From positions 4,328,001-4,392,000 of the forward strand of contig BNHL01000001.1 in assembly GCA_015472025.1 (NCBI GenBank): 64,000 nucleotides of DNA, read 5' to 3'. The position numbers and the translations under genes are program-made. Below are positions 3,266 through 64,000 of the stretch, in pieces. Each line of letters starts with the position of its first letter. Positions within the stretch are counted from its first letter, which is position 1. A model generated the notes under the pieces. The model did no database searches, was not told the DNA's origin, and worked only from the letters and a program-made list of their open reading frames with translations. The stretch is from Cytophagales bacterium WSM2-2 (GTDB taxonomy: Bacteria > Bacteroidota > Bacteroidia > Cytophagales > Cyclobacteriaceae).

Positions 3266-3289
3266 TTTTGATTAGGGTTTAAGTTTCTT

Positions 3290-3322
3290 AAAGTGTGACT
3301 GGAGGGTCACACTTTTCATTTC
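3290..3322 (+). terminator. Rho-independent-like terminator or attenuator inside the pectin locus
   Basis: Perfect 10-bp stem AAAGTGTGAC (3290-3299) and GTCACACTTT (3306-3315) with a 6-base TGGAGG loop, followed by T-rich sequence. It separates the binding-protein genes (SusD, DUF5123) from the enzyme genes. The T-run is short and interrupted by a C, so partial read-through is likely. Confidence 0.7.
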
Positions 3323-3335
3323 AAAATAGTTAGAT

Positions 3336-6645: not shown

Positions 6646-6676
6646 TGGACGATTGAATATTTGAAATGAATTGAGA

Positions 6677-8026: not shown

Positions 8027-8976
8027 AGAAATTGCTGGCGTTATTGTTTTTTGTTCTTTGTGCTGAACTGCAAGCTCAAAAGTCTGCTTACGATTTTGTG
8101 GTTGCCAAAGATGGTTCAGGAAATTTTGTGACGGTGCAAGAAGCTTTCAATGCTGTTCCCGATTTTAGAAAAAATACGACTACCATTTTCGTAAAAAACG
8201 GAACTTACAAAGAGAAGCTTATTTTGGCCGGATCAAAGACGAATGTGCGACTGACCGGTGAGGATGTGCTGAAGACGATTATAACGTATGATGATTTTGC
8301 TCTGAAGAAGAACAAGTTTGGTGAGGAGATAGGCACAACCGGGTCGACCAGTTTCTACGCTTTTGGTGATGGGTTTACTGCGGAGAATCTGACTTTTGAA
8401 AACTCATCAGGGCCTGTAGGACAAGCGGTGGCGGTTCGCGTAGATGGAGACATGACCAGGTTTATCAACTGCAGGTTTATTGGATTCCAGGATACGCTTT
8501 ATCCGCATGGCGAGAAGAGCAGGCAATACTATAAAGATTGCTACATTGAAGGAACAGTGGATTATATTTTCGGATGGTCGACAGCCGTGTTTGAAAATTG
8601 TACGATTCATACTAAGAAAAATGGCCTCTATGTCACAGCTGCCTCCACCCTGGAAAATACACCGTATGGTTTTGTATTCATCAATTGTAAAATCACCGGT
8701 GATGCTCCTGAGGCTTCGATTTATTTAGGAAGGCCTTGGCGGCCTTTTGCCAAAACAGTGTTCATTAACTGCTCACTCGATAAAATAATCAAACCTGAAG
8801 GTTGGCATAACTGGAACAAACCTGACGCAGAAAAAACTTCATTCTATGCCGAATATAAATCGACAGGAGCGGGAGCGAATGAAAAATCAAGAGTGGCATG
8901 GTCACATCAATTGACGGACGATGAAGTGAAGAATTATACTTTGGAAAAAATATTTGGTGACTGGAAAGTAAATTAA
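8023..8976 (+). CDS. Pectin methylesterase (CE8), second copy
   Basis: A 317-aa pectinesterase with signal peptide MKKLLALLFFVLCAELQAQ. Catalytic residues are complete: Gln134 (GQAVA), Gln156 and Asp157 (GFQDTL), Asp180 (VDYIFG) and Arg237 (LGRPW). It is clearly paralogous to the CE8 at 4082 but divergent over the whole length, so the duplication is not recent. Two CE8 enzymes in one locus could reflect different methylation patterns or processive versus random modes of action, which is inference. The gene overlaps the pectate lyase by four bases and is followed 11 bp later by the polygalacturonase. Confidence 0.95.
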   Translation: MKKLLALLFFVLCAELQAQKSAYDFVVAKDGSGNFVTVQEAFNAVPDFRKNTTTIFVKNGTYKEKLILAGSKTNVRLTGEDVLKTIITYDDFALKKNKFGEEIGTTGSTSFYAFGDGFTAENLTFENSSGPVGQAVAVRVDGDMTRFINCRFIGFQDTLYPHGEKSRQYYKDCYIEGTVDYIFGWSTAVFENCTIHTKKNGLYVTAASTLENTPYGFVFINCKITGDAPEASIYLGRPWRPFAKTVFINCSLDKIIKPEGWHNWNKPDAEKTSFYAEYKSTGAGANEKSRVAWSHQLTDDEVKNYTLEKIFGDWKVN

Positions 8977-8987
8977 ATCTTATTTGT

Positions 8988-10658: not shown

Positions 10659-10727
10659 AACTGAGAATTATAACCGAAATTGCGCGTTAATCTGCGTTGA
10701 ATTCCATCAGCGCCAATCAGCTGGAAA
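10659..10727. other. Short convergent spacer with CTGCG/AATCTG-rich sequence
   Basis: Spacer between the convergent GH28 and altronate dehydratase genes. It contains TTAATCTGCGTTGAATTCC-type sequence resembling the degenerate ATCTG-rich intergenic sequence common in Bacteroidota (compare 16562-16650). No clear terminator hairpin was found. Confidence 0.35.
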
Positions 10728-12374: not shown

Positions 12375-12392
12375 TTCGATATAAGTCTTAAA

Positions 12393-12412
12393 TTGCGCAA
12401 TCGATTGCGCAA
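12393..12412. promoter_or_regulatory. Perfect 20-bp palindrome, probable LacI-family operator of the hexuronate genes
   Basis: TTGCGCAATCGATTGCGCAA is a perfect palindrome with central CG, the layout typical of LacI/GalR-family operators. It lies 19 bases upstream of uxaA and about 100 bases upstream of the divergent oxidoreductase gene. Its core GCAATCGATTGC is nearly identical to the palindrome at 46481-46504 in front of the xylan genes. No LacI-type regulator gene is in the window. Operator function is inferred. Confidence 0.7.
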
Positions 12413-12477
12413 GGTAGGAAAAATATAAATAAATAGCACCACTCTACCCAAGATGTGTACCTTTCAACTTAACAATC

Positions 12478-12499
12478 ATGCAACAACAAAAAGTTGCAT
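12478..12499. promoter_or_regulatory. Inverted repeat in the leader of the oxidoreductase gene
   Basis: ATGCAAC (12478-12484) and GTTGCAT (12493-12499) flank an 8-base A-rich spacer. The half-sites resemble those of the two LacI-type palindromes, but the spacing is different. It could be an mRNA hairpin just before the ATG at 12515 or a second regulator site. A near match to the Bacteroidota -7 box (TACCTTTC, 12458-12465) lies upstream. Confidence 0.35.
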
Positions 12500-12514
12500 A
12501 AACTTTCAATACTC

Positions 12515-13564
12515 ATGAATTCATTTCCCGTCATCACGGCACTGCTTTCCTACGGTATGTCGGGCGAAATCTTTCATGCTCCCTTTCTTACTACGCACTC
12601 CGGCTTTCAACTCAGGAAAGTAGTTGAGCGGAGCAAGCAAAAAATCAGGCAACGTTATCCCCAAGTCATCTCCGTCAGCAATATTGATGATGTTCTCAAC
12701 GATTCCATGATTGAGTTGATCATTGTTAACACACCCAATGAGACACATTACAGTTTTGTAAAAGAGGCTTTAAAAGCAGGCAAGCATGTAGTGGTTGAAA
12801 AACCATTTACTCTAACCTCAAAGGAGGCAGAAGAATTAATTGACTTGTCGAAAGCAAAGAACAAAGTCCTCACCGTATTTCAAAGCAGACGATTCGATGG
12901 AGATTTCATGACACTCCAAAACGTACTAAAGCAAAACCTTGTAGGGAAAGTTGTTGAGTTTGAAGCACACTACGATCGCTTTCGCAATTATATTGAGGCT
13001 AATACGTGGAAAGAAGAGTCTGCGCCTGGAACGGGAATTCTATATAATCTCGGTTCGCACATGCTGGACCAAGTGTTGTTGTTATTTGGCAAACCAAGTG
13101 AAGTTGATGCACGCATCGGAATTCAACGGCCGGGTGGAGTGGTCGATGATTTTTATGATATTCGGTTGACTTATTCCGGAATGCTCGCCATCGTGAAGTC
13201 GAGTTACCTGGTGCGTGAGGCAGGTCCCCGCTATATCCTTCATGGAACGAATGGCTCATTTGTAAAATGCGGCCTCGATCCGCAAGAGCAGGATTTGAAA
13301 GACGGTAAGACTCCTGACAGCCCAAACTGGGGACAAGAAGAAGATCGATGGTGGGGGAAGCTCAATAGTACGATAGACAATACATCGGTTGAAAAGAAAA
13401 TAGAAACACTTCCGGGTAACTACAAAATGTTCTACGACAATCTATGCGATGCCATCCGGAATAAAAAGCCGTTGATAGTGAAGGCAGAAGAAGCCAAAGA
13501 AGTAATACGACTGATCGAGACTTGTTACGAAAGCAACAAGCAGAGGCGGGCGATTAAGTTTTAA
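12515..13564 (+). CDS. Gfo/Idh/MocA-family NAD(P)-dependent oxidoreductase
   Basis: A 349-aa dehydrogenase (counted from ATG 12515). The start was preferred over TTG 12494 because it aligns with the usual family N-terminus (VITALLSYGMSGEIFHAPF, a Rossmann loop with GMSG in place of the more common GxGxxG). The motif VVEKPFTLT contains the conserved EKP lysine, and the C-terminal half has GTGILYNLGSHMLDQ, typical of family members with substrate-binding His in this position. Its first place in an operon with kdgK, eda and exuT suggests a role with sugar acids, possibly a reductase of a uronate intermediate, but the family is broad and the substrate cannot be told. It is 9 bp from the KDG kinase. 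Confidence 0.85.
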   Translation: MNSFPVITALLSYGMSGEIFHAPFLTTHSGFQLRKVVERSKQKIRQRYPQVISVSNIDDVLNDSMIELIIVNTPNETHYSFVKEALKAGKHVVVEKPFTLTSKEAEELIDLSKAKNKVLTVFQSRRFDGDFMTLQNVLKQNLVGKVVEFEAHYDRFRNYIEANTWKEESAPGTGILYNLGSHMLDQVLLLFGKPSEVDARIGIQRPGGVVDDFYDIRLTYSGMLAIVKSSYLVREAGPRYILHGTNGSFVKCGLDPQEQDLKDGKTPDSPNWGQEEDRWWGKLNSTIDNTSVEKKIETLPGNYKMFYDNLCDAIRNKKPLIVKAEEAKEVIRLIETCYESNKQRRAIKF

Positions 13565-13573
13565 ATTTGACGA

Positions 13574-14575
13574 ATGACTAAACCCCATAAAATAGTAACT
13601 CTGGGAGAGATCATGATGCGTTTATCAACACCTGGTAGCGCTCGATTCACTCAAGCAACCAACTTGAATATCCTTTATGCAGGATCAGAAGCAAACGTAG
13701 CTGCCTCACTGGCGCTGTTCGGAGTAAAAGCTGAACATATCACACGTTTCCCAGACAATGACTTGGGACTTGCAGCAACACAAACCCTGAAACGTTGGGG
13801 AGTTGATACTTCGCACATCATATACGGTCCGGAACGAATGGGTTTGTATTTCCTGGAAAACGGAAATATGCAACGCTCTTCACGAATTGTATATGACCGT
13901 TTCAACTCTGCCTTCGCGCACATCAAACCCGGCATGATCAACTGGAGCGAAGTCTTTAAAGATGCCTCCTGGTTTCATTGGACAGGAATTACACCCGCAA
14001 TCTCACAAGGTGCAGCAGATATTTGTTTAGAAGCACTGGCTGCAGCAAAAAAAGCCGGGCTGACTATTTCGGGTGATATTAACTACAGGAGAAATCTCTG
14101 GCAGTATGGAAAGACAGCTCAGCTGGTAATGCCTGCGCTGATCGAACACACACAGATTGTCATTGCAGGAATTACGGACATGGAGAACAGTGCTAAAATT
14201 TCGGGGAATACATTCGAAGAGGCTTGCAAGAATTTTGTGGCTCGCTTTCCTAATGTAAAAAGAATAGCAACTACCGAGCGCAACTCGATCAGTTCATCGC
14301 ATAATAAGATTTTGGCCTTGCTCTGGAATGAAAAACTTCTTCAATCCAAAGAATACGATTTAACACACATCGTTGACCGGGTAGGAGCAGGCGATGCTTT
14401 CATGGCCGGATTGATTTACGGGTTGATGACAAGACAGAACGACCAGCAGGCGTTGGAGTTTGCCACGGCAGCATGTGCCTGGAAACATTCTGTAGAAGGC
14501 GATGTAAATATCGCCACAGTAGCTGAAATCGATGCACTGGTAAAAGGCGAAAACGTTGGTAAACTTCTCAGATAA
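13574..14575 (+). CDS. kdgK: 2-keto-3-deoxygluconate kinase (PfkB family)
   Basis: Phosphorylates KDG to KDPG with ATP. The 333-aa protein has the PfkB/ribokinase fold: N-terminal IVTLGEIMMRLSTPG, the substrate-binding glycine stretch YAGSEANVAASLA (residues 35-47), and the C-terminal anion-hole motif DRVGAGDAFMAGL with catalytic Asp274. The residues GDINYRRNLW (167-176) are characteristic of KDG kinases. It lies between the oxidoreductase and KDPG aldolase genes on the same strand with gaps of 9 and 19 bases, completing the route altronate to KDG to KDPG to pyruvate plus glyceraldehyde-3-phosphate. Confidence 0.94.
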   Translation: MTKPHKIVTLGEIMMRLSTPGSARFTQATNLNILYAGSEANVAASLALFGVKAEHITRFPDNDLGLAATQTLKRWGVDTSHIIYGPERMGLYFLENGNMQRSSRIVYDRFNSAFAHIKPGMINWSEVFKDASWFHWTGITPAISQGAADICLEALAAAKKAGLTISGDINYRRNLWQYGKTAQLVMPALIEHTQIVIAGITDMENSAKISGNTFEEACKNFVARFPNVKRIATTERNSISSSHNKILALLWNEKLLQSKEYDLTHIVDRVGAGDAFMAGLIYGLMTRQNDQQALEFATAACAWKHSVEGDVNIATVAEIDALVKGENVGKLLR

Positions 14576-14594
14576 AATAAGTAGTTAAAAAGAA

Positions 14595-15257
14595 ATGCCA
14601 TTTACGAACGAACAAATAGTTAATGCGATGAGGACCACCCGCCTCGTCCCTCTCTTCTCGGATGATAATGCAGAGACAGTTCAACAGGTGGTGCAAGCCA
14701 TTTACAAAGGAGGTATTCGTGTTTTCGAGTTTACGAATCGAAAGAAGAACTCGTTTGAAGTCTTTCAGCATTTGATTAGTCAGCGTAAATCCTATCCTGA
14801 AATGATGTTGGGAGTAGGGACAGTTATGGATGGATCAACTGCTAAAAAGTTCATCGATGCAGGAGCCGATTTCATTATCTCACCGATATTGAAACCTGAG
14901 ATGGCAGATGTTTGCAAGAAGCATGATAAGCATTGGATACCGGGTTGCGCTACACTCACCGAAATTGTCACAGCCCAAGAACACGGTGCGGAAGTGATCA
15001 AAGTATTTCCCGGTTCGGTATTAGGTCCCGGTTTTGTTTCGGCAATTATGCCGGTGGTTCCGGATCTTCAATTGATGATTACGGGAGGAGTGGAGCCGAA
15101 TGAAAAAAATCTTAGCACCTGGTTTAACGCCGGAGCCATGTGTGTAGGCTTAGGCTCACAGTTGTTTACCAAAGAAATTATGGGAAGTAAAGACTGGAGC
15201 CAACTCCAGCGGAAATCTGAAGAAGCACTGACAATTATTCAGCAATTGAAAAAATAA
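14595..15257 (+). CDS. eda: KDPG aldolase (2-dehydro-3-deoxyphosphogluconate aldolase)
   Basis: A 220-aa class I aldolase that splits KDPG into pyruvate and glyceraldehyde-3-phosphate. Glu45 (FEFTNR) and the Schiff-base Lys136 (VIKVFPGS) are in place, as is the GVGTVMDGSTAKKFIDAGADFIISP strand-loop region of the family (GVGTV at 73-77) and the phosphate-binding TGGV near residue 160. Length and motifs match Eda/KdgA enzymes. It directly follows kdgK and precedes the hexuronate transporter by five bases, so the operon order is oxidoreductase, kinase, aldolase, transporter. Confidence 0.95.
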   Translation: MPFTNEQIVNAMRTTRLVPLFSDDNAETVQQVVQAIYKGGIRVFEFTNRKKNSFEVFQHLISQRKSYPEMMLGVGTVMDGSTAKKFIDAGADFIISPILKPEMADVCKKHDKHWIPGCATLTEIVTAQEHGAEVIKVFPGSVLGPGFVSAIMPVVPDLQLMITGGVEPNEKNLSTWFNAGAMCVGLGSQLFTKEIMGSKDWSQLQRKSEEALTIIQQLKK

Positions 15258-15262
15258 CTATC

Positions 15263-16561
15263 GTGGAGACACAACAACAAATGGGAAAGTATCGATGGAC
15301 GATCTGTGCGTTGGTATTCTTTGCTACAACAGTCAACTACCTCGATCGGGCGGTGATCAGTTTGCTGAAGCCCGTTTTGTCCAAGGAGTTTACCTGGGAC
15401 GATGGCGACTACGCCAATATTGAGATTGCCTTTAAGCTCATGTACGCGCTCGGAATGCTTGGCGCAGGCCGTGTCATCGACAAGCTTGGCAGTAAGATCG
15501 GATACCTGGTAGCAACATTCACGTGGAGTCTGGCAGCCGTTGGGCATGCTTTTGTGCAAAGTACCATCGGGTTCATTGTGGCGCGTGCCACACTGGGTGT
15601 GACTGAGTCAGGCAATTTTCCAGCAGCTATTAAGTCTGTTGCAGAGTGGTTTCCCAAAAAAGAACGAGCACTGGCTACAGGTATATTCAACTCAGGAGCC
15701 AATGTCGGAGCTATCCTGGCGCCTGCTACAGTTCCCTTCATTGCAGAAGCCTGGGGGTGGAAGTGGGCATTCGTGATCACCGGATCATTCGGTTTCATTT
15801 GGCTCATCTTGTGGTTCATGATCTACGACAAACCCGAAAAGCACAAGAACGTGTCGAAGGAGGAATTGGCCTACATTAACAGCGACAAAGAAGAAGCATC
15901 GGCCAACAATGAAGAGAAAGTGTCGTGGTTTAAACTGCTGACTTTCAGACAAACATGGGCATTCGTTTTAGGTAAATTTATCACAGATCCAATCTGGTGG
16001 TTCTATCTTTTCTGGCTACCGGACTTTCTGGTCAGCCAATACGGACTCACCGGTACAGAGGTGTCGATGCCTGTTGCAATCGTGTATATCATATCCACTT
16101 TTGGAAGTGTTGGTGGTGGTTGGCTACCGCTGAAGCTCATCAGGAGCAACTGGCCTGTATTTAAAGCACGCAAGACATCCATGCTCGTTTATGCAATTTC
16201 CGTTTTACCCATCGTATTTGCGCAAGTGCTTGGCGAGATGAATATGTGGTTTGCGGTGATCGTCATCGGCTTGGCTACATCATCACACCAGGCATGGAGC
16301 GCCAACATATTTACCACCGTATCTGACATGTTTCCCAAAAAAGCCGTGGCTTCCGTTACCGGCATTGGCGGTATGTTCGGTGGGATGGGTGGGATTTTGC
16401 TCACGCTGCTTGTACAGAAAAACATGTTCGTATACTACCGAAGCGTTGGTCAGATCGAAACGGCTTACCTGATCATGTTCTTTATCTGCGGTGGAGCTTA
16501 TCTGCTGGCATGGACAGTAATGCATTTGTTAATCCCGAAGATGGAACCGGTTAAGTTGTAA
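15263..16561 (+). CDS. exuT: Hexuronate MFS transporter (ExuT-like)
   Basis: A 432-aa inner-membrane permease of the major facilitator superfamily, anion:cation symporter type, predicted to import galacturonate or glucuronate with protons. About 12 hydrophobic helices are visible, beginning with RWTICALVFFATTVNYLDRA, a sequence characteristic of hexuronate transporters. MFS loop motifs GRVIDKLGSKIG and the family motif LGVTESGNFPAAIK in helix 4 are present. The start is GTG 15263; ATG 15281 is also possible and would shorten the cytoplasmic tail by six residues. It is the last gene of the operon; a weak hairpin (CTCTTC/GAAGAG, 16656-16671) lies about 95 bp downstream. Confidence 0.92.
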   Translation: METQQQMGKYRWTICALVFFATTVNYLDRAVISLLKPVLSKEFTWDDGDYANIEIAFKLMYALGMLGAGRVIDKLGSKIGYLVATFTWSLAAVGHAFVQSTIGFIVARATLGVTESGNFPAAIKSVAEWFPKKERALATGIFNSGANVGAILAPATVPFIAEAWGWKWAFVITGSFGFIWLILWFMIYDKPEKHKNVSKEELAYINSDKEEASANNEEKVSWFKLLTFRQTWAFVLGKFITDPIWWFYLFWLPDFLVSQYGLTGTEVSMPVAIVYIISTFGSVGGGWLPLKLIRSNWPVFKARKTSMLVYAISVLPIVFAQVLGEMNMWFAVIVIGLATSSHQAWSANIFTTVSDMFPKKAVASVTGIGGMFGGMGGILLTLLVQKNMFVYYRSVGQIETAYLIMFFICGGAYLLAWTVMHLLIPKMEPVKL

Positions 16562-53314: not shown

Positions 53315-56300
53315 ATGAAAAGAAGTATTTTAATATATGTGTTATTGGTGGGCGTGTGGTCAAATTTGACTGCGCAAAACCAGAATTTCCGTGCTGATAT
53401 AAATAAGCCGGATTATCATCCGCCTTCACCGGAAGCAGCATCATTAGGTAAGTACGGCCAATATAATGTAAGTCTTAGCACGGGAATCCCCGATATCACC
53501 ATTCCTATTTACAATCTCAAAGTTGGAGGCTTCACATTGCCGATATCCATCTCTTATCATGCGGGCGGTATTAAGCTAACCGAAATAGCCAGCCGTGTGG
53601 GGCTGGGTTGGTCATTAAATGCAGGTGGTACCATTAGCCAAAATGCAATGGGGATTCCTGATGGATTTCAAAGCAGACTTATCCCTCCACAGACGTTTCA
53701 GCCGTTGTGCGAAACCATTAACTGTGCACCAAATGCGGACTATAATTTAGCAAAGGATATTATTGATAACCAGAGTTATGACACAGAGCCTGATATTTAT
53801 ACCTACAATTTTCTTGGCTTCACCGGCAAGTATGTAATTACGAATGAGGGTGTCGCAACCTTGCCATTCACCTCTGAAATCACTTTTGATGATGACATCA
53901 CCGACAAGAATGGGAATCGTTATATTTTTGGTGAAAGTGAAACCAGCAGTGTCATACGGACTTGTACAATGGCCACCGGATCTCAATTTTCAGGGGCTTC
54001 AGCATCTTACCTGACGAAAATAATAACAACCCAGGGCGACACCATTCAATTAATTTATGATCATGAGATCTATAGCTATTTTCAATCGACTTCTGAAAAG
54101 AAGTATTTTAGGGATATTAATGCAACAGGTACTGACCAGTCTTGCACTTTACCTCCCAATGTAGTTTGTAAAGATAAAAATGCAGTATACGTTCCCCGCT
54201 TGAAACAAATCGTATCTTCTAACGGGGTGGTGATCAATTTTCAATACAACGACCTGAGACTTGATGTTGAGACCAATGTGGCCAGCCCTGACCAGTACTC
54301 GGCCAGAGCACTCAATCAAATCACTGTTACCGAAGATGGAGTTTCTGTTTCTTATTCATTAACGTACGAGGTAATCAATTCCGGTCCTGGTGCGAATGGA
54401 GTAGCAGCCACAGGCAAGCGGATGTACCTGAAGAAATTGGTGGATAAAGACAAGGGTGTATACCAGTTCCAGTATACCACCAGAGAGCATTTACCGGCAC
54501 GCGATTCATATGCCATAGACTATTGGGGTTATTACAATGGAGGGACATCTAATACAACTCTGATTCCTTCTTACAATCTGGTCAATTTTATTGGAGGCGG
54601 ACGTTTAACCAGCCAGGCAGAGATACTCAGCGGTTCGCTCAACAAGATAATTTATCCTACAGGTGGTTACTCCAGTTTTGAACTGGAGCCGCACAAAGCA
54701 GATGTGTCCGGGATACTGGGTGGAGGTCTGCGTGTCAAATCTATTTCCAATTATGATGCTGATAACACAGTCATTTCAAAGAAGAACTATAAGTACACAT
54801 CGAATACAAACAACGGACCTACGGAAGATGCCATGGCTTTTCAATACATGGACATTTTGCGGCAGCGCAAAATGAATGAGAATAATGGAACATTCTATGA
54901 TCCAAGCATAGCGCAATGCGTTTTTTTGATCTTGTCCAGCAATACCAACCCACTTTTTGAAGGGATGATTCCCAGCGTTCAATACCCTGTTGTGGAGGTA
55001 ACCGATTCAGATTCAACGATGTCCGGGAAAAGCATCTTCTATTATGCCAACGTTGATTTTGGTTCGACAACCCCCGCAGTGCAGGCAGAAGGACGGCAGG
55101 ACTATAAGATTCAAAAGGAAGAACATTATCGTTTTGTTGGCCCCAATGCCAATGACTTTCAGAAGGTAACTGAAAAGCAATACACGTATCAGGGGTTCCC
55201 AAATGAAACAGCATTTTTTACCTACGACCCGAATAATGAGCTTAATTATAAACAGGCATTGGGTTTCCGGATAAAGTATGACTTACCGGAGCAAGCTGCC
55301 GGTCCTGAGGTTCCGGCATTTTATCCAGCTGTTTTTTCCTTTTATCACTACAAATACACCTCCATCTGGTGCTTCCTGAAAAGTATAACGGAGACGAGTT
55401 ATGATAACGTAGGAAGGGCCTTAATCACAACGACTAATTTCGATTGTGAAAATTTTATTCATGCACAACAAACGAAATCCACTACAACCAATGAGCGCGG
55501 TACACACACACAAATAACCCGCTACCCGCAAGATTATATTAATGGAGGCATCGCCGGAAGTAATGTACCCCAACAGTGGTTTAAAGGTGTGCCGGTGGAA
55601 GAACTCACGTTGGTTAACGGAAACCTTGTCTCCGGGCAACTCAATGAGATGACGTACGAGAACAGCGTATTGAAACTTTTAAAGAAGCACGTGTCAAATC
55701 TCAGCACTCCATTGAACGACCCAACGAACTATCCAGCAAGCAATACACATAATTTCAGTTTGTTTCCAGCGGGCAATCCCTACCGGGAATACTATCGTGT
55801 TGTATCGGTTGACAGCAAGGGGAATCCTACGGAGGTACGTTCCGTGGACGGGAACTTATCGCAGGCAATAATATGGAATACAAGAAAGAGGCAAGCCCTT
55901 GCGGTCATTGATAATGCTTCTTATTCAAGTGTAGCTTATACTGATTTTGATGGCACGAGTAAAGGGCAGTGGAAGTATTCAAATTCTTATGACTCAGGGG
56001 CTGGGTTTAATAATACAACCGGCTTTAATGGAACGAGTATCTGGCGCGACAATCTTAGTGCCGGAAAGTACAGAGTAAGTGTCTGGGCCAATGGTGCTGC
56101 ACCAACTGTAAGCAGCACAGGGGCAACGATTACACCCGTAGCCGGATCGCCATTTAACGGCAATGACAACTGGAAGCTATACGAGTGGACAGTGACCCTC
56201 AGCACGACCGGTACAGTGACAGTTACTAATGCATCAGGAGCATACCTCGATAATGCCCGCTTATATCCCGACAATAGCAAGATGGTGACGTTTAACTATG

Positions 56301-56452
56301 CGCCTGTTGTCGGATTATCTTTTAAGACAGACACCAATAACAGGTCGGAATATTATAACTATGATGCCAGTGGTCGCCTGATCAAAATCCGTGACGATGC
56401 CAACAATATCATTAAGTCTTTCGAATACCATGTCGTAAATACCAACCCCTGA
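53315..56452 (+). CDS. Secreted RHS-like protein (SpvB/RHS N-terminal type) with carbohydrate-binding-like module
   Basis: A 1045-aa exported protein (signal peptide MKRSILIYVLLVGVWSNLTAQ). Residues about 50-110 have the opening seen in Bacteroidota RHS proteins (VSLSTGIPDITIPIYNLKVG, ISYHAGGIKLTEIASRVGLG, WSLNAGG). A long strand-rich shell-like middle follows. Residues about 860-990 look like a jelly-roll (FDGTSKGQWKYSNSYDSGAG ... LSAGKYRVSVWANG). A single YD-type repeat (YYNYDASGRLIKIRDDANNI) closes the protein, with no RHS core or toxin domain. It is the first of four same-strand genes; its TGA overlaps the next ATG (TGATG). Function is unknown; shell formation with the downstream RHS proteins is conceivable but not shown. 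Confidence 0.87.
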   Translation: MKRSILIYVLLVGVWSNLTAQNQNFRADINKPDYHPPSPEAASLGKYGQYNVSLSTGIPDITIPIYNLKVGGFTLPISISYHAGGIKLTEIASRVGLGWSLNAGGTISQNAMGIPDGFQSRLIPPQTFQPLCETINCAPNADYNLAKDIIDNQSYDTEPDIYTYNFLGFTGKYVITNEGVATLPFTSEITFDDDITDKNGNRYIFGESETSSVIRTCTMATGSQFSGASASYLTKIITTQGDTIQLIYDHEIYSYFQSTSEKKYFRDINATGTDQSCTLPPNVVCKDKNAVYVPRLKQIVSSNGVVINFQYNDLRLDVETNVASPDQYSARALNQITVTEDGVSVSYSLTYEVINSGPGANGVAATGKRMYLKKLVDKDKGVYQFQYTTREHLPARDSYAIDYWGYYNGGTSNTTLIPSYNLVNFIGGGRLTSQAEILSGSLNKIIYPTGGYSSFELEPHKADVSGILGGGLRVKSISNYDADNTVISKKNYKYTSNTNNGPTEDAMAFQYMDILRQRKMNENNGTFYDPSIAQCVFLILSSNTNPLFEGMIPSVQYPVVEVTDSDSTMSGKSIFYYANVDFGSTTPAVQAEGRQDYKIQKEEHYRFVGPNANDFQKVTEKQYTYQGFPNETAFFTYDPNNELNYKQALGFRIKYDLPEQAAGPEVPAFYPAVFSFYHYKYTSIWCFLKSITETSYDNVGRALITTTNFDCENFIHAQQTKSTTTNERGTHTQITRYPQDYINGGIAGSNVPQQWFKGVPVEELTLVNGNLVSGQLNEMTYENSVLKLLKKHVSNLSTPLNDPTNYPASNTHNFSLFPAGNPYREYYRVVSVDSKGNPTEVRSVDGNLSQAIIWNTRKRQALAVIDNASYSSVAYTDFDGTSKGQWKYSNSYDSGAGFNNTTGFNGTSIWRDNLSAGKYRVSVWANGAAPTVSSTGATITPVAGSPFNGNDNWKLYEWTVTLSTTGTVTVTNASGAYLDNARLYPDNSKMVTFNYAPVVGLSFKTDTNNRSEYYNYDASGRLIKIRDDANNIIKSFEYHVVNTNP

Positions 56453-56883
56453 TGAACGAAATCATTATGCGACACATCTTTATTTTCTTTTTATTGTCTT
56501 ACTCCTCTGTTGCCGCACAAACACCATTGACCGGCACATGGAATATCGACTGGCAAGCCACCCGCTCGGCCATGACAATGGCTGAAAATCAAAAATTCTC
56601 CGGAATGTCTTCGGCTATGCAAACGAAAGTGCAACAAGGTTTTGAAAACAGATCTTATATATTTAATACGGACGGTCAATTTACAGCCAGCTGGCAAACT
56701 GGCGGACAACAAAAACAAGTGCAGGGAACCTGGAGCGTTATAAATACCAGGGTTACTATTGATGCCCAGGGTCAAACCAAACAATACGATTATTCAATCT
56801 CCGGAAATCAATTGACGCTTACGGAAGTATTATCGGGAACAGGCGGGTTATTTTCTACTTTGATTTTGAGCAGGGCTAATTGA
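56452..56883 (+). CDS. Small secreted lipocalin-like protein in the RHS operon
   Basis: A 143-aa product with signal peptide; the first Met overlaps the RHS stop (TGATG), while ATG 56467 (MRHIFIFFLLSYSSVAAQ) gives a tighter signal. The mature part of about 120 residues reads as a short lipocalin-like beta-barrel: PLTGTWNIDWQATRSAMTMA at the start and repeated strand pairs (RSYIFNTDGQFTASWQTGGQ, QVQGTWSVINTRVTIDAQGQ, YDYSISGNQLTLTEVL). It lies eight bases before the next RHS gene, so it is embedded in the operon. It could be a chaperone or immunity-like partner; that is speculation. Confidence 0.75.
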   Translation: MNEIIMRHIFIFFLLSYSSVAAQTPLTGTWNIDWQATRSAMTMAENQKFSGMSSAMQTKVQQGFENRSYIFNTDGQFTASWQTGGQQKQVQGTWSVINTRVTIDAQGQTKQYDYSISGNQLTLTEVLSGTGGLFSTLILSRAN

Positions 56884-56890
56884 TATTTTC

Positions 56891-59518
56891 ATGAAAAAAT
56901 TTTTTCCAGCAGTTTTATTGATCGTGCTACCGGTATATGCAGCATGGTCTCAATCAGCCGCGATTTCCGGTCCGTCAACTTCGATGTTGAATGAAACAAA
57001 AAATTATCACGTAGTTCTTTATGACAGGAATGGAGAGCCGCAAGTTCCAGTGGGAGGGGTAGATTGGCAAGTAACTCTGGGTGATTTGATTGACAATACC
57101 AATGCTTCGGCGAGTGTAAAATGGACACAGTATGGCACCGGTTTCATTGAATTTGGCTATCAGTCGTTTGATGATTATTACTATGGGGTAGCTTATACAG
57201 CAGTTGTTGTTCCGGATCCCAATCCCACGTCAACCTCGATTACTTATTACTGTAACAGCACAGCTTACACACTTAATAGCAGCCCACCTACAGGCGTGGA
57301 GTGGTACTGGCAGACTTCTATTGATGGTACCAGTACGTCTTTAGGCCATAGTGCTACAATAACCAGGACAACTACTGATCCTTTTTACTTGCGAGCCCGG
57401 GCCCTGGATGGTACATGGAGTGCGAATTCTCTATCCTTTACTACTGTCACTATAGTTGATTGGCCTACACAGGGGGGAAGTATCGGAAGCTCAACGACCA
57501 TATGTTCTTCCACTGCACCTGGTACACTGACGAATACTTCAAGTGCTCAGAGTGGTGATGGTATCGTGAGCTACCAGTGGGAGCAATCACTGGATAATAC
57601 TAATTGGAGTAATGTCTCCTCGGGAGGAAATTCGGCAACCTATTCGCCAGGCTCACTCTCTTCAAAAACATATTATCGCAGAAAAGCCTCTGCCATTTGT
57701 GGCGTAGCATATTCTAATGTTGTGATCATCGACATCTATCCCACGCTAAGTGCCGGAAGTATCAGCGGACCATCTACGATCTGTTACAATACATCCCCTG
57801 GTACTTTGAATGGTACTGCGGCTACAGGCGCCAACAACTATCAATGGTATTCTAAAACTGGAATAAACTGGTTCCTTATCTCCGGAGCAACAGGACAGTC
57901 GTACACCCCTCCTGGGAATTTTACCGGTTCGCATGACTATAAACGAATAGCCATAGGGCCATGCAACAGTCTTTCCTCCGACCCAATTACCATTAATGTT
58001 AGCCCGGATCTTGTGCCCGGATCGATCAGCGGTAATCAGACGATATGCTCTGGCTCCAGTGCCACGGCTTTGAGCGAATCACTTCCCACTGGAGGAGATG
58101 GTTCTTACAGTTACCAGTGGCAAAGCTCATCCGATGGCAGCACATTGTGGTCGGATATCAGCGGGGCTACATTACCTTCTTATACCAGCTCTTTCTCCAC
58201 GACTACATTTTTGAGAAGGAACGAATCCTCTTGCGGGCAAACCCGGAGCTATAACAGTGTTAACATAATTGTAGATGCAACTTCTAACGGAGGAACTCTG
58301 AACTCTTCGAGTTCAGTATTTTCTTCCTATAGCGGCTCACTGGCATTGAGTGGGAGTACAGGCAGTGTAGTGAAGTGGCAGAGCCGGGTGGGCGCAGGTA
58401 ACTGGACGGACTTAGCTAACACGGAGACGAGTCTTCTCCTTCTTGACGTTACGAAAACCACTTCTTACCGGGTGAATGTTAAAAGTGGAATTTGTGCAGA
58501 TACATTTTCCAGTGAGGCGCAAATTACGATCATCCCCATCCCCGTGATCACCGCATCCACGAACCGCATTAGTCTGGGGCCGGTGACAATGGATGCCGGT
58601 AGTGGCTATTCATCCTACGTGTGGAAGAACAGGGCAGGTGCGACACTGGGTACTGCTCGTACTTACAGTACTGCAGTCCCGGATTTTTATACAGTGACAG
58701 TAACGCAGGCTGGAGTGATTGGCACTGGATTATCGGCAGAGTTTAACCTGATCGATGAGATGGATGGCGTTCAACGCAATTACGTCATTACCAATACCGT
58801 ACTCAAGGGCGGGGTAACGACCAGCCAGGGTGTGAAAGACCTGGCAGTGACTGACCTGTCACAAAGCATACAATACTTTGACGGGATCGGGCGGCCTTTG
58901 CAGACGGTGATCACGCAAGGATCGCCATCGAGAAAGGATATTGTCCAGCCTGTCGAATACGATGTCATTGGGAGGGAAGCCAAAAAATACCTGCCATATG
59001 TTTCAGTAGAAGCCAACGGGCAATTTAAAGCCAATCCGACAAATGACCAGGCTGCTTTCTATACTACCGGTGGTAAAGTAGCAAGCGACACACGGCCATA
59101 TTCTGAAATTACTTTTGAACCTTCTCCACTCAATCGCCCGACACAACAATTTGGTCCCGGGTCAGACTGGAAAGACAATAATAAATTTGTGGGGCATCAG
59201 TATTTAGTAAATAGTGCTAACGAAGTGCTTTTGTTTACCTACAACCAGACCACTGGATTAGTGTCCACCGGATCGGGATCATCAGCCGGGTACTATGATG
59301 CAGGACAACTTCATGCCAATGTAACTACCGATGAACACGGCAACGAAGTGATCGAGTATATAGATAAACTCGGACATACGGTGTGCAAGAAAGTGCAGTA
59401 CAAAACGGATAGTGGCATGAAGCAATATGCAAGTACTTACTATGTCTACGATGATATTGGCAATCTTGTTGTTGTGCTGCCACCGGAGGCTACAACCAAA
59501 CTCGCCCAGCAACAATAG
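56891..59518 (+). CDS. Secreted protein with Ig/PKD-like repeats and DUF6443 (N-terminal part of an RHS protein)
   Basis: An 875-aa exported protein (signal peptide to about residue 20, VYAAWSQSA). Residues about 30-560 contain several Ig/PKD-like modules with the recurring plan 'SISGPSTICYNTSPGTLNG... YQWYSKTG' (GSISGNQTICSGSSATAL is another copy). Residues about 600-760 match the DUF6443 opening of Bacteroidota RHS proteins (SIQYFDGIGRPLQTVITQGS, PVEYDVIGREAKKYLPYVS). The ORF stops right after DDIGNLVVVLPPEATTKLAQ, a point where typical family members continue into YD repeats. The next gene, 49 bases on, resumes that sequence behind its own signal peptide. A split or truncated RHS gene is inferred. 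Confidence 0.85.
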   Translation: MKKFFPAVLLIVLPVYAAWSQSAAISGPSTSMLNETKNYHVVLYDRNGEPQVPVGGVDWQVTLGDLIDNTNASASVKWTQYGTGFIEFGYQSFDDYYYGVAYTAVVVPDPNPTSTSITYYCNSTAYTLNSSPPTGVEWYWQTSIDGTSTSLGHSATITRTTTDPFYLRARALDGTWSANSLSFTTVTIVDWPTQGGSIGSSTTICSSTAPGTLTNTSSAQSGDGIVSYQWEQSLDNTNWSNVSSGGNSATYSPGSLSSKTYYRRKASAICGVAYSNVVIIDIYPTLSAGSISGPSTICYNTSPGTLNGTAATGANNYQWYSKTGINWFLISGATGQSYTPPGNFTGSHDYKRIAIGPCNSLSSDPITINVSPDLVPGSISGNQTICSGSSATALSESLPTGGDGSYSYQWQSSSDGSTLWSDISGATLPSYTSSFSTTTFLRRNESSCGQTRSYNSVNIIVDATSNGGTLNSSSSVFSSYSGSLALSGSTGSVVKWQSRVGAGNWTDLANTETSLLLLDVTKTTSYRVNVKSGICADTFSSEAQITIIPIPVITASTNRISLGPVTMDAGSGYSSYVWKNRAGATLGTARTYSTAVPDFYTVTVTQAGVIGTGLSAEFNLIDEMDGVQRNYVITNTVLKGGVTTSQGVKDLAVTDLSQSIQYFDGIGRPLQTVITQGSPSRKDIVQPVEYDVIGREAKKYLPYVSVEANGQFKANPTNDQAAFYTTGGKVASDTRPYSEITFEPSPLNRPTQQFGPGSDWKDNNKFVGHQYLVNSANEVLLFTYNQTTGLVSTGSGSSAGYYDAGQLHANVTTDEHGNEVIEYIDKLGHTVCKKVQYKTDSGMKQYASTYYVYDDIGNLVVVLPPEATTKLAQQQ

Positions 59519-59567
59519 CTAAAGTCGGGTAGATAATCTCAGCAAATCAAAAAGATACAGCAGAATA

Positions 59568-62500
59568 ATGAAACATATATATATCCTCGTTACAGCCCTT
59601 ACGATATCCGTTGTTTTCGGGGCGGTCGCGCAAACGGGCCAGTCGGTTATCTGGAGAGAGCGTGCCGGAGCAGATGTAAATTCCAATGGTTCGCTTACCA
59701 AGACAGCAGCAGGGGGTTGGGGTAATGCAGGTGCTAATTCATTCAATGCATTGGCCGCTAGCACAGACGGATGGATCGAGTTTACCATTGCTGACAATAC
59801 AAGCCGCTATATCATCGCGTTCGGTGCAGCCGGCACCAACTTCCAGTACACGCAGTCAGTGCAGGGCATCCTGGTCAACGTAAGCGACCACGGGCTCTAC
59901 TTCATGCAAAGCAACAACGGGGGAAGCCTGGTCACGCACTGGCAGGTAGGCGATGTAATGCGTATCGCACGCGTGGCAGGCACGGTGCACTTTTACCAGA
60001 ACGGATCTGAGATCGGCTCGCCCGCATCGAATGTAAACGGATCGTTTATCGCCAAGTCGATCATTGATACGGGAAGCTCGCCCGCAGTTACCACTTCATT
60101 TGGTATACCAGTCACGCTGAGTGCCGGTATTACACCAACAGGCGTGAGCAGCAACACAGGCGCGATCTCCCTGACCTTAACTGGGGGTACTGCACCCTAT
60201 TCTTATTCCTGGTCATCAGGCGAACAAACCTCGGGTATATCCGGTAAGGCCGCTGGTGCCTACACAGTTACTGTGACCGATGCCGTCGGAGGCACTGCGG
60301 TGGGTACATTCTCCATTGGCTATAGTGTCAGCTGGACAGAACTGCAGGGCGTTACTGGTACGAGTACGCTCACGAAGACAGCCGCTGACGGTTGGGGCAA
60401 CGGAGGGGCCAATTCGTTCAACGTATTGCCTGCCAACACCGATGGCTGGATCGAGCTCACCGTTGCAGATGACGAGAGCCGTTACATTATATCTTTCGGC
60501 AAGGCCCACACCGATTTTCAGTACACGGAAGCTGATGCTGGTATTTTGATCAATGTGAGTGACCACGGGGAATATGAAATGCAACATGACAATGGTGGTT
60601 CGGTAATTGGCTATTGGCAGGTAGGCGATGTGATCCGTATTGCGCGGGTGGGGGGCACGGTTCGTTTCTACCAGAACAAGACAGAGATTGGCACACCGGT
60701 ACAAAATGCCAATGAGCTTGTTGCCAAGTCGATTATCTACAATGGAAGTTCGCCCGCAGTCACATCTTCTTTCAACATACCTGTTACACTCAGTGTTTCA
60801 GTGACCCCGACAGGTTCCTCAAGCCCCACGGGGGCTATTGCAGTGACCGCGAGTGGAGGTACAGCACCTTATACTTATTCGTGGTCTTCGGGAGAGCAGA
60901 CATCTACCATATCAAATAAAGGAGCCGGTAACTATTCCGTTACGGTATCAGATGCCACAGGTCGTACAACGGTCCGGGTATTCTCCATCGGCTACAATGT
61001 GAAGTGGACACAACAAACGGGTGTCACGGGTTCGGAAGGGATTCTCACCAAGACGGTCGATGACTGCTGGGGCAGTGGAGGGGCCAATTCGCTCAATGTG
61101 CTGCCCGCAGGCACCGATGGGTGGATCGAGTTTACCATTGCTGACAATACCAGCGATTACATCATTTCGCTTGCCATGGCCGACAATGATTTTCTATATA
61201 CTGCGGCTGTGCAGGGTATTGCGGTGAACGTGCCTGACCACGGGCTGTATGTCGTGCAGAGCAACGGGGGAGGATCGGTGTTAGGCTATTGGCAGGTAGG
61301 CGATGTGATCCGCATTGCGCGAATATCGGGTACAGTGCACTTCTACCATAACCAATCGGAAATAGGCACGCCTGCGCAGAACGTCAACAATGCTTTCATT
61401 ATTAAATCGATCATCGAGACCGGAATTTCTCCCGCTGTCTCGGTTTCATTTGGTGCTCCATTATCTGTGGCGGAAATTATAAACGTATATTCATTTCAAT
61501 ACAAGTATGACGGACGCAAGCGTATGATCGCCAAGAAAGTGCCGGGAGCCGATTGGGTATATATGGTGTATGACAATCGTGATAGGCTCGTACTCACTCA
61601 GGATGGGAACCAGCGGTTAAGTAATCAATGGACATTCACAAAATACGATGCACTTAACCGGCCGGTGATGACAGGAATCTATTCCCATGGTGCACCTGCA
61701 GAACAGGCCGATATGAATGCGCTGATCAGTACTACTAATTTCTCTGAGACGTACAATGGAGATGCTACCAATCACGGGTATACCAACACCGTTTTTCCTA
61801 ATGACCTTACTAAACTGGAGGCTTTATCTGTAACCTACTACGACAACTACAATTTTAAGTCAACGTTTACCACAGGCACTGACTATGATTATGGCGCTTC
61901 CGATATCTCCGGACTCCCATTGTCAGCTCAGAGTGCTGTTGTTGGCCAGGCCACGGGCACAAAAGTAAAAGTGCTCAAGATTGGCAACTGGTTAAAAACG
62001 GTAAGCTACTTCGATGAAAAATACCGGGTTATTCAAACCGTTGCCGACAACTCTAAGGCAGGCACCGACCGCACGAGCAATGTCTATGATTTCGTTGGTA
62101 AACTTCTGGCTACGCAAACGACCACGACTACCTCAAATCTGACCTGGAAAGATCCATCCAATGTTCTCTTATTCTCCAATGGCGTGCTCAGTACGCTCTC
62201 CGGGCAGGGCGCAGGTGTGGTATCTACACAAGTACTCCCGGCGAATACAGATGGCTGGGTTGAAACCAAAGTCAACCAGATAAAAACTACCCAGGAATTC
62301 GGGTTATCTGCGACCAACCCCGATAATCTTCAAAGCTCAATCAACTTTGGTATCAGAACGTCATTGAATACGCAATATGCGATGGAGAACGGTTCACAAA
62401 AAACGGGAACAGTTGTTGCTGTTGGCGATGTCTTGAGAATTGAGCGGGTAGGCGGGACGATCAGGTATTACAGGAACGGAACACTGACATATACTTCGCA

Positions 62501-64000
62501 AGTAACAAGCACGAGTGCGCTGATGCTGGACCTGGCTCTGGATACTTTTGGGAGTATCAATGAAATACGAACATCTTTTGGTGGTACCAGTACCAATGTG
62601 ATTTCAAGAACCTTCGAGTATGACCATGCCGGTCGCCTTGTAAATACCTGGCACAGCCTGAATAGTGCAACACCTGTATTACTGGCAAAGAACGAGTACA
62701 ACGAAGTAGGTCAGCTTGTTGACAAGAAATTGCACAGTACGAATGGTACGAGCTTCAAGCAAAGCACTGACTATCGTTATAACATCCGCGGGTGGCTCAC
62801 ATCCATCAATGACTCACAATTGTCTGTTACCGACACCGACAGTAATCGTGATCTGTTTGGTATGAACCTTTCGTACAATGATCCGGTAAGCGGACTTAAC
62901 AATGCTAAACAGTTTAATGGTAATATCTCTGCGATACGCTGGAGTAACAACCTGGCGCTGGGTACTATTAAAGACGTGGCTTACAACTATTGCTACGACA
63001 CCATGAACCGGATTAAGTCGGCATCATACCTGACCCACTCCGGCACGTGGACAGCATCGACAAACTTTGCGGAGAAGAATTTCTCGTATGACCAGAATGG
63101 AAACATCCGGAAACTGACCCGCACAGCTACGGCAGCCACAGCGATGGATGACCTTGCCTATACCTACCGCGGTAATCAATTGACTACCGTAACGGATGGG
63201 GGAGATGTGACCAAAGGCTTCACCGATGGCAATACGAGCGGAGACGACTACAGCTACGATATGAACGGCAATATGATTGCTGATAAAAATAAAAACATCA
63301 CGGCTATCACCTATAACTATCTCAACCTCCCGCAGCAAGTGACTAAAGGCACTGGTGAGAAGATCGTATACACCTATGATGCAGGTGGAGGAAAACTGAA
63401 GCAACAGGTATACAATGCAAGCAGTGTACTACAAAAGACAACCGACTACACCGGTGAATACATTTATCAAAATGACACGTTGCAATTCGTTAATCATGAG
63501 GAGGGAAGGGTAGTGATCAAGAATACGACCACGCCTGAATACCAATATCATTTAAAAGATCATCTGGGCAACGTGCGTGTGACGTTTACCACAAAGAATG
63601 ATATTGACCAGGCTCAAGCCACTTTTGAACCTGCTAACCAGAATGCAGAGCAAAGCAAATTTCTGCGCATGGATGATGCGCGTATCATCAACTCAGCTTT
63701 GTTCGATCATACCCACAACGGTACTACTGCTTACTCGGAAAGGTTAAGCGGCTTAGCGAACGAAAAGACAGGCATAGCACGCTCGATCAGCGTGATGCCG
63801 GGCGACACGATAAAGATGGAGGTGTTTGCGAAGTATGTCGATGCAAGCAACAGTAACAATACAGTAGCACTTAATCAATTGATTGCACAGATCATCGCAG
63901 GTACAGCGAGTGCAGGTACAGTAATAGACGGGGTAAACTATGCCACCAATGGAAATACGCCATTCCCGTATACCGGTCTTGCTGGCGAAGGTAGTAGCAC
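59568..64000 (+). CDS. Secreted RHS/YD-repeat protein with triplicated lectin-like/SprB cassette, 3' partial
   Basis: The frame is open from ATG 59568 to the window end (at least 1477 aa). In order: signal peptide MKHIYILVTALTISVVFGAV; three copies of a roughly 155-aa beta-sandwich module (from Trp29, Trp256 and Trp480), each with GWG(N/S)xGANS, DGWIE and the QVGDVxRIAR-GTVxFYxN motif; SprB repeats between them (TGGTAPYSYSWSSGEQTSGI); then, at residue 642, SFQYKYDGRKRMIAKKVPGA, the normal continuation of a DUF6443 RHS protein. A fourth module copy starts near residue 860, followed by YD repeats and the RHS core motif HLKDHLGNVRVTF at 1328-1340. The variable C-terminus, where a toxin could sit, lies beyond the window. 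Confidence 0.88.
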   Translation, partial: MKHIYILVTALTISVVFGAVAQTGQSVIWRERAGADVNSNGSLTKTAAGGWGNAGANSFNALAASTDGWIEFTIADNTSRYIIAFGAAGTNFQYTQSVQGILVNVSDHGLYFMQSNNGGSLVTHWQVGDVMRIARVAGTVHFYQNGSEIGSPASNVNGSFIAKSIIDTGSSPAVTTSFGIPVTLSAGITPTGVSSNTGAISLTLTGGTAPYSYSWSSGEQTSGISGKAAGAYTVTVTDAVGGTAVGTFSIGYSVSWTELQGVTGTSTLTKTAADGWGNGGANSFNVLPANTDGWIELTVADDESRYIISFGKAHTDFQYTEADAGILINVSDHGEYEMQHDNGGSVIGYWQVGDVIRIARVGGTVRFYQNKTEIGTPVQNANELVAKSIIYNGSSPAVTSSFNIPVTLSVSVTPTGSSSPTGAIAVTASGGTAPYTYSWSSGEQTSTISNKGAGNYSVTVSDATGRTTVRVFSIGYNVKWTQQTGVTGSEGILTKTVDDCWGSGGANSLNVLPAGTDGWIEFTIADNTSDYIISLAMADNDFLYTAAVQGIAVNVPDHGLYVVQSNGGGSVLGYWQVGDVIRIARISGTVHFYHNQSEIGTPAQNVNNAFIIKSIIETGISPAVSVSFGAPLSVAEIINVYSFQYKYDGRKRMIAKKVPGADWVYMVYDNRDRLVLTQDGNQRLSNQWTFTKYDALNRPVMTGIYSHGAPAEQADMNALISTTNFSETYNGDATNHGYTNTVFPNDLTKLEALSVTYYDNYNFKSTFTTGTDYDYGASDISGLPLSAQSAVVGQATGTKVKVLKIGNWLKTVSYFDEKYRVIQTVADNSKAGTDRTSNVYDFVGKLLATQTTTTTSNLTWKDPSNVLLFSNGVLSTLSGQGAGVVSTQVLPANTDGWVETKVNQIKTTQEFGLSATNPDNLQSSINFGIRTSLNTQYAMENGSQKTGTVVAVGDVLRIERVGGTIRYYRNGTLTYTSQVTSTSALMLDLALDTFGSINEIRTSFGGTSTNVISRTFEYDHAGRLVNTWHSLNSATPVLLAKNEYNEVGQLVDKKLHSTNGTSFKQSTDYRYNIRGWLTSINDSQLSVTDTDSNRDLFGMNLSYNDPVSGLNNAKQFNGNISAIRWSNNLALGTIKDVAYNYCYDTMNRIKSASYLTHSGTWTASTNFAEKNFSYDQNGNIRKLTRTATAATAMDDLAYTYRGNQLTTVTDGGDVTKGFTDGNTSGDDYSYDMNGNMIADKNKNITAITYNYLNLPQQVTKGTGEKIVYTYDAGGGKLKQQVYNASSVLQKTTDYTGEYIYQNDTLQFVNHEEGRVVIKNTTTPEYQYHLKDHLGNVRVTFTTKNDIDQAQATFEPANQNAEQSKFLRMDDARIINSALFDHTHNGTTAYSERLSGLANEKTGIARSISVMPGDTIKMEVFAKYVDASNSNNTVALNQLIAQIIAGTASAGTVIDGVNYATNGNTPFPYTGLAGEGSS
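59652..61463 (+). repeat. Large in-frame coding repeat, two full units and one partial
   Basis: Units start at 59652 (681 bp), 60333 (672 bp) and 61005 (partial, to about 61463; no SprB part). Each full unit encodes a lectin-like module plus an SprB repeat. Conservation is at DNA level: 59772-59800 and 61122-61150 are identical over 29 bases, and the segments around 60616, 61296 and 59946 are nearly so. A more diverged fourth module is at about 62145-62590. Confidence 0.85.

What the first reader, a model, noticed from the sequence alone, without database searches (positions are those of the whole stretch)
56891..64000. One DUF6443-type RHS protein appears split into two separately exported polypeptides
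Seen: the 875-aa ORF ends just after DDIGNLVVVLPPEAT, and the next ORF, which has its own signal peptide, resumes with SFQYKYDGRKRMIAKKVPGA at residue 642. From recognition of the family, these two blocks are normally close together in one chain. The junction is occupied here by a stop, a 49-bp gap, a new signal peptide and about 610 residues of repeated lectin-like/SprB modules. Inference: gene fission by insertion of a modular exported cassette, giving a two-part RHS shell comparable in principle to the TcB/TcC split of Tc toxins. Most of the separation is large new coding sequence, so a simple sequencing error is unlikely.
Basis: partly seen in the sequence, partly recalled or inferred. Interest (0 to 1): 0.78.

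Follow-up and report, generated by a model that had tools for sequence, protein, structure and literature searches.

The report
Toxin shell built from three chains
A hollow protein shell that these bacteria probably use to carry a toxin is encoded here as three separately exported pieces instead of two, cut at a point where a number of relatives also cut it, often with a different sticky arm attached.

Summary
ORF A (875 aa) and ORF B (full length 1874 aa, running past the window) match consecutive parts of a one-piece 1960-aa paralogue in the same genome; only 12 linker residues are unmatched. One piece is the usual state: 78 of 80 named loci. The split is still no local accident. 116 of the 120 best A-type proteins of a length-limited search, own included, end just past the same motif. 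At least 12 of 75 DUF6443 matches in the genus are split, B carrying lectin/SprB, LRR, fn3, Ig or no module after a signal-peptide-like start. Trees reject one split clade (AU p 0.0002). Two one-piece proteins hold such a lectin in the linker, so cutting and insertion are separable.

AlphaFold of the one-piece paralogue gives an RHS cocoon (pLDDT 88). The cut falls in a loop between two helices, about 60 residues after the point where TcC chains begin. With the upstream gene's model it tiles a TcB-TcC cocoon. Best reading: a three-chain Tc-like toxin cocoon. Assembly, export route and target are inferred, not shown.

The parts
53315..56452 (+). gene1, 1045 aa: first chain; model matches the first half of RHS cocoons including TcB; ends just after a YD repeat
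56452..56883 (+). 143-aa lipocalin-like small protein between gene1 and A; role unknown
   Evidence: Pfam Lipocalin_4 E 1.9e-8; 41% identical copy at the same place in the own-genome paralogous locus L036
56891..59518 (+). ORF A, 875 aa: second chain; signal-peptide-like start, Ig-like repeats (by eye), DUF6443, last YD repeat and C-terminal tail
   Evidence: signal peptide judged by eye
58814..59206 (+). DUF6443 domain (A residues 642-772)
   Evidence: Pfam PF20041, 153.4 bits
59489..59518 (+). A's C-terminal tail ATTKLAQQQ and stop, 9 residues after LPPE
   Evidence: 116 of the 120 best A-type proteins, own included, end 6-14 residues after this motif
59519..59567 (+). 49-bp gap; no terminator-like site listed in it
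59568..64000 (+). ORF B, third chain (first 1477 of 1874 aa; continues to L034:13192, equivalent to window position 65192)
59568..59633 (+). B signal-peptide-like start
   Evidence: by eye and a simple hydrophobicity count; no SignalP run
59634..60107 (+). lectin-like module 1 (B 23-180)
60150..60290 (+). SprB repeat 1 (about B 195-241)
   Evidence: Pfam PF13573, 7.6e-15, two stretches; limits approximate
60303..60782 (+). lectin-like module 2 (B 246-405), 65% identical to module 1
60819..60965 (+). SprB repeat 2 (about B 418-466)
   Evidence: limits approximate
60978..61463 (+). lectin-like module 3 (B 471-632), 63% identical to modules 1 and 2
61479..62144 (+). RHS restart of B (B 638-859 = P891-1111); SFQYKYDGR at 61491
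62142..62603 (+). internal lectin-like module elsewhere in the RHS part (B 859-1012), 29-39% identical to the N-terminal modules

Best explanation
Gene1, A and B are three Sec-exported chains of one RHS cocoon of the TcB-TcC type. Gene1 supplies the TcB-like first half; A's C-terminal 250 residues (DUF6443 and the next repeats) carry the strip on; B closes the barrel, carries the Rhs core and ends in an exchangeable toxin tip that is probably cut off inside the shell. A and B join where one-piece relatives have a short loop between two YD repeats. Chain ends at such repeat boundaries are tolerated, and each new N-terminus is a free place to hang adhesive modules (Ig-like on A, lectin/SprB on B), so the finished shell would bear extra binding arms. 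Shown: coding, homology to the one-piece form, repeated use of the same cut, predicted fold of the one-piece form and of gene1, Rhs core and variable tip. Inferred: export by the three N-termini, assembly of separate chains into one particle, autoproteolysis, outer-membrane crossing, use against competing cells.
Confidence: 0.7

Rival explanations
1. Fission by cassette insertion: the lectin/SprB cassette inserted into the linker of a one-piece gene and brought its own stop and signal peptide, creating the split in one step.
For: P0220 and P0221 are one-piece chains with one lectin-like module of the same family in the linker, so insertion at this site happens. The B_N1-3 modules are related to a module elsewhere in the RHS part.
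Against: In the quick tree of 93 rows the window's A sits in a group of 23 A-type rows that are all split (SH-aLRT 92). B chains of other split loci carry LRR, fn3, Ig or nothing; L080, L120 and P0231 have a signal-peptide-like start only. So the cut most likely predates this cassette; which B belongs to each of the 23 rows was not established.
Confidence: 0.13
2. A and B do not share a shell: each is an independent exported protein (A an Ig-type adhesin, B a lectin-armed Rhs toxin) that merely sits in one operon.
For: Each has its own signal-peptide-like start; in L264 one A is not followed by its own B; no co-structure exists.
Against: The DUF6443 region of A is 59-71% identical to its five best split relatives. 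A stops and B resumes exactly at a repeat boundary of one-piece relatives. In the one-piece model both parts belong to one chain that matches Tc cocoons from end to end.
Confidence: 0.14
3. Direction reversed: the split is the older state of this group and one-piece genes are re-fusions.
For: Trees need 8 changes (bootstrap 8-9), at least 5 forced, but cannot say gain or loss; fused rows lie inside the largest mostly split clade (19 of 122).
Against: One-piece forms fill the wider sampling (78 of 80 named loci, many Chitinophaga and Pedobacter). Each split has its own signal-peptide-like start and varied modules, which re-fusion would have to remove cleanly.
Confidence: 0.2
4. Artefact or decaying gene: a sequencing, assembly or nonsense error.
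For: One relative (G031:C39, L082) shows a frame break beside N bases and another (G325:C41) a frameshift-like break, so such errors exist in draft genomes.
Against: About 1.9 kb of open coding sequence with a new start separates the halves here; the same end point recurs in many contigs and in the cultured C. serpens DSM 24574.
Confidence: 0.02

Closest known systems
TcB-TcC (BC) cocoon of Tc toxins
   Same: RHS cocoon made from more than one chain; a cut in the same part of the barrel; TcB-like first part; PxxxxDPxG-type core and variable tip. Fold matches 4o9x, 4igl, 5kis, 6l7i. Natural tcB-tcC fusion genes are reported (PMC7861908, passages read).
   Different: Three chains, the cut about 60 residues later in the barrel, and a further cut inside the TcB-equivalent part; each chain has its own signal-peptide-like start and adhesive modules. 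No TcA found, but that search had no working control. No SpvB Pfam hit.
One-piece DUF6443 RHS proteins with an upstream gene1 (own paralogue L036; many Chitinophaga and Pedobacter loci)
   Same: Same domains in the same order; gene1 nearby in 72 of 80 named loci
   Different: DUF6443 and the RHS/toxin part are one chain, with a linker of 7-18 aa in 151 of 173 stretches
T6SS Rhs effectors (RhsA, Tse5, Tse15, RhsP)
   Same: RHS cocoon with C-terminal toxin; cocoon fold matched. RhsA is cleaved at both ends and stays sealed (PMC8765631, passages read).
   Different: Single translated chain delivered by T6SS; their cuts are proteolytic
TANFOR polymorphic toxins of Bacteroidetes (PMC7073777, passages read)
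   Same: Mostly Sec-exported Bacteroidetes polymorphic toxins; SprB, fn3 and PKD domains in the neighbourhood; sometimes the toxin is in the next gene
   Different: Other N-terminal domain; the separation described concerns the toxin domain, not the shell wall
Teneurins and teneurin-like proteins
   Same: RHS barrel with YD repeats
   Different: Single chains (recalled), not split

Membership tests
DUF6443 (PF20041) | PF20041 domain above the curated cut-off | tested here: met
   ORF A residues 642-772, 153.4 bits against cut-off 27.8
Rhs polymorphic toxins | RHS repeat-associated core domain | tested here: met
   TIGR03696, 47.4 bits against cut-off 32.5, in full-length B 1573-1653
Rhs polymorphic toxins | Variable C-terminal tip after the core | tested here: met
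   An orphan copy about 11 kb downstream is 92% identical over B1272-1477 and its homology stops just after DPDG; relatives carry M91, M23 or DUF6973 tips
Rhs polymorphic toxins | Cognate immunity gene after the tip | tested here: inconclusive
   A 223-aa ORF follows B directly; no Pfam or NCBIfam immunity family hit
Tc toxin BC cocoon | Closed RHS cocoon fold over TcB+TcC | tested here: inconclusive
Tc toxin BC cocoon | Two chains, TcB and TcC, with the break at the TcC start | tested here: not met
   Three chains; TcC start maps to model 199-204, the A|B break to 261-272
Tc toxin BC cocoon | TcB N-terminal SpvB domain by sequence (PF03534) | tested here: not met
Tc toxin BC cocoon | TcA pore partner | tested here: inconclusive
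   PF18276 not found, but no control genome rang either
T9SS cargo | Recognised C-terminal secretion domain | tested here: inconclusive
   No such Pfam hit on gene1, A, the window part of B or B's tip, although the genome has SprA; unrecognised signals cannot be excluded

The most novel reading that the evidence does not exclude
Bacteroidota have an undescribed class of multi-chain RHS cocoons in which the wall is repeatedly and independently cut at the same repeat boundaries, each cut being used to export the shell in pieces and to hang a new adhesive arm. The cut sites would be evolutionary docking points that retarget a conserved toxin shell, alongside the known exchange of its toxin tip. 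One cultured strain, Chryseolinea serpens DSM 24574, carries three arrangements of the same shell (gene1|A|B, gene1~A|B, gene1|A~B).
Probability: 0.42. Interest if true: 0.82.

Novelty: new variant of a known kind. Interest (0 to 1): 0.68.

Why it matters
RHS cocoons are known as one chain (T6SS Rhs, teneurins) or two (TcB-TcC). If three separately exported chains close one shell, the barrel can be assembled in trans outside the cytoplasm, which bears on how such large closed cages cross membranes and where they fold. Recurrent cutting at one site gives a natural series (bare linker, lectin in linker, signal peptide only, signal peptide plus module) for how multi-subunit cages arise from single chains. 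Source names often call A 'hypothetical' or 'DUF6443' and B 'RHS repeat-associated' or 'leucine-rich repeat' protein, so such systems are easily counted as separate genes.

Tried and rejected
Read-through or frameshift fusion of A and B: rejected; different frames and a stop just upstream of B. Pseudogene or sequencing error: rejected by recurrence. Single origin of the split: rejected (AU p 0.0405 on the quick tree; 0.0002 on the careful tree; that tree's bootstrap had not fully settled, correlation 0.964). The 98 rows are my choice: of 282 A-tails I kept 93, then left out two long or odd rows and added 7 new ones. Before or in the A trees: P0095 ('other') and L081 ('edge') were not used, L082 (N bases) was dropped, near-identical rows were merged; P0051 and P0066, which end 173 and 209 aa past the motif, counted as fused in the 282-row tree and were left out of the 93. 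In the B tree P0133, P0219, P0128, P0211, P0237, P0152 and B-only frames of other loci were left out. Single-sequence PDB searches with B's RHS part and with gene1 found nothing. DUF6443 in papers: 0; 'split Rhs' and five like phrases: 0; 'Chryseolinea serpens' with 'Rhs': 0. These cover open-licence PMC only. B's tip (L034:12488-13189, HELYGH motif seen by eye) has no Pfam match. 'SpvB-like' for gene1 was first recalled from memory and later supported by fold only. The homologue search admits 481-1531 aa, so it cannot give the share of split proteins, and only 120 of its 1973 hits were listed. The TcA search is uninformative.

Full report
WHAT IS THERE. The window ends in an operon-like run on the + strand: gene1 (53315-56452, 1045 aa), a 143-aa lipocalin-like gene (56452-56883), ORF A (56891-59518, 875 aa) and ORF B (from 59568). 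The window cuts B; in the genome it is 1874 aa, ending at L034:13192, and a 223-aa ORF follows directly. A carries DUF6443 (PF20041, 153.4 bits, residues 642-772). Full-length B carries the Rhs-associated core (TIGR03696, 47.4 bits, residues 1573-1653).

THE SPLIT IS REAL. The genome has three DUF6443 genes. One, P (L036:5614-11496, 1960 aa), is one piece with its own gene1 and lipocalin upstream. A1-871 aligns to P1-878 (53%), B638-859 to P891-1111, and B991-1655 to P1092-1744. Twelve residues of P have no partner. A and B are in different frames with a stop just upstream of B. What is new in B is a signal-peptide-like start, three lectin-like modules (63-65% identical to each other) and two SprB repeats. 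A fourth module of the same family (29-39% identical) lies elsewhere in the RHS part, B859-1012.

ONE PIECE IS THE USUAL STATE. 78 of the 80 are one piece; L092 and L120 are split. A gene1 match lies in 72 of the 80 loci, mostly just upstream but in a few on the other strand or further off. In 173 one-piece stretches (a redundant set) the linker is -1 to 23 aa in 167, 57-65 aa in four, and 168 and 170 aa in two. In a sample of 291 genomes of the order, 63 had a match; among the 30 loci fetched, only the window's own was classed as split.

BUT THE SPLIT IS COMMON AND PRECISE. A search with A's DUF6443 region gave 1973 proteins at E <= 1e-10, length-limited to 481-1531 aa. Of the 120 listed, 116 (the window's own included) end 6-14 residues after the LPPE motif: 115 by pattern, P0068 by eye. 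A search with B's RHS start listed 120 of 1794 proteins, of which 91 (own included) lack a DUF6443 annotation. Two of the 91 (P0133, P0219) look like fragments and several others start inside a module or without a clear signal peptide; most of the rest show a signal-peptide-like start, a module, then the same RHS start. P0231 has the start only, with the RHS head at residue 29. 17 of 115 A-type proteins share an exact contig length with a B-type protein, which suggests, but does not prove, the same contig.

THE GENUS. 62 genomes gave 75 DUF6443-region matches in 43 genomes. Two more A chains lie on L264 (gene1-A-gene1'-A'-start of B at the contig end). That makes at least 12 of 75; not all of the remaining 63 were fetched, and a few are at contig ends or broken (L081, L082, G325:C41, G028:C66). 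Gaps from A's stop to B's chosen start are 1-429 bp. B's modules: lectin/SprB (window), LRR (L078, L079, L256, L257), fn3 (L259; L264 by eye), Ig-like (L258, L260, weaker L261), none (L080; also L120 outside the genus). B is cut by a contig end in L080 and L120.

HOW OFTEN. The A-region tree of 282 rows needs 10 changes between split and one-piece against 90 in shuffles. A careful tree of 98 chosen rows needs 8 (bootstrap 8-9), at least 5 forced by well-supported branches, and rejects all split rows as one clade (AU p 0.0002). A separate tree of 199 B-start regions also needs 10, at least 5 forced. Direction cannot be told from these counts.

INTERMEDIATES. P0220 and P0221 are one-piece proteins with one module of the same family exactly in the linker (E 1e-22 and 1e-18 to the internal module of B). 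Natural gene1~A fusions exist (P0027, P0036, P0063, P0064, P0112). No gene1~A~B protein was seen among 86 gene1-containing frames or proteins, a set partly limited in length. The cultured Chryseolinea serpens DSM 24574 has four such loci: gene1|A|B (L269 and, more divergent and with gene1 by motif only, L271), gene1~A|B (L270) and gene1|A~B (L103).

PARTNERSHIP OF A AND B. Over 18 split pairs (14 by equal contig length, 4 by locus), A and B distances correlate at r 0.54, 0 of 5000 permutations as high; the halves of 45 one-piece proteins give r 0.28, 1 of 1000 as high. This shows co-inheritance at least as tight as within one chain, not contact.

TIP AND NEIGHBOURHOOD. About 11 kb past B lies an orphan C-terminal copy (L035:3959-5683) with another tip (Peptidase_M91). 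Its homology to B stops just after DPDG, as expected for tip exchange. Tyrosine-recombinase-like and ATPase-like ORFs lie between (named by eye). Relatives' tips include M91, M23 and DUF6973. T9SS SprA is present, but no chain shows a Pfam-known T9SS tail.

MECHANISM. Shown by sequence: the cut, its recurrence, the conserved ends, the core and tip. Shown by prediction: the cocoon fold of the one-piece form and a matching first-half fold of gene1. Inferred: three chains exported through Sec, assembled outside the cytoplasm into one cocoon around the tip, tip released by the conserved core motif as described for Rhs and Tc proteins (PMC8765631 and PMC7861908, passages read), arms projecting from each N-terminus. 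Signal peptides were judged by eye and a simple hydrophobicity count.

LITERATURE. DUF6443: no paper held. Split or bipartite Rhs phrases: none. TcB and TcC forming one cocoon is known (PMC8765631, passages). Natural tcB-tcC fusion genes are noted in PMC7861908 (passages). A Bacteroidetes toxin class with the toxin sometimes in the next gene is known (TANFOR, PMC7073777, passages). PMC3482391 surveys RHS toxins; the 12 of 53 places I saw describe no split RHS shell.

Noticed in passing
L035:3959-5683 (about 11 kb after B's end): Orphan C-terminal Rhs piece with an M91 tip; highly similar to B1281-1656 and diverging after DPDG, with a 168-aa ORF after it.
   Followed up: yes
L034:13998-17585: ATPase-like ORF and two tyrosine-recombinase-like ORFs between B's tip region and the orphan tip, suggesting an inserted mobile element (named by eye).
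   Followed up: no
window 56452-56883; L036:5192-5593: Lipocalin-like gene between gene1 and A, also present in the paralogous locus at 41% identity; role unknown.
   Followed up: partly
L264 (reverse strand) 87-16197: Tandem gene1-A-gene1'-A'-start of B: one A without its own B directly after it.
   Followed up: partly
L079 about 8181-8600: Small signal-peptide-like ORF in the gap between A and B in G003.
   Followed up: no
L080 about 9510-9750: Gap between A and B in G015 holds a truncated LRR-type chain start, as if an LRR-armed B had been replaced by one with a signal-peptide-like start only.
   Followed up: partly
P0220 residues 707-862, P0221 residues 631-784: Lectin-like module inserted in the linker of one-piece chains: insertion without fission.
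   Followed up: yes
G000:C1:94683-100766 (reverse): 2240-aa open frame with many stretches similar to B's SprB repeats elsewhere in the genome.
   Followed up: no
L034:12488-13189: B's tip carries a HELYGH motif by eye but no Pfam match; perhaps an undescribed zincin-type tip.
   Followed up: partly
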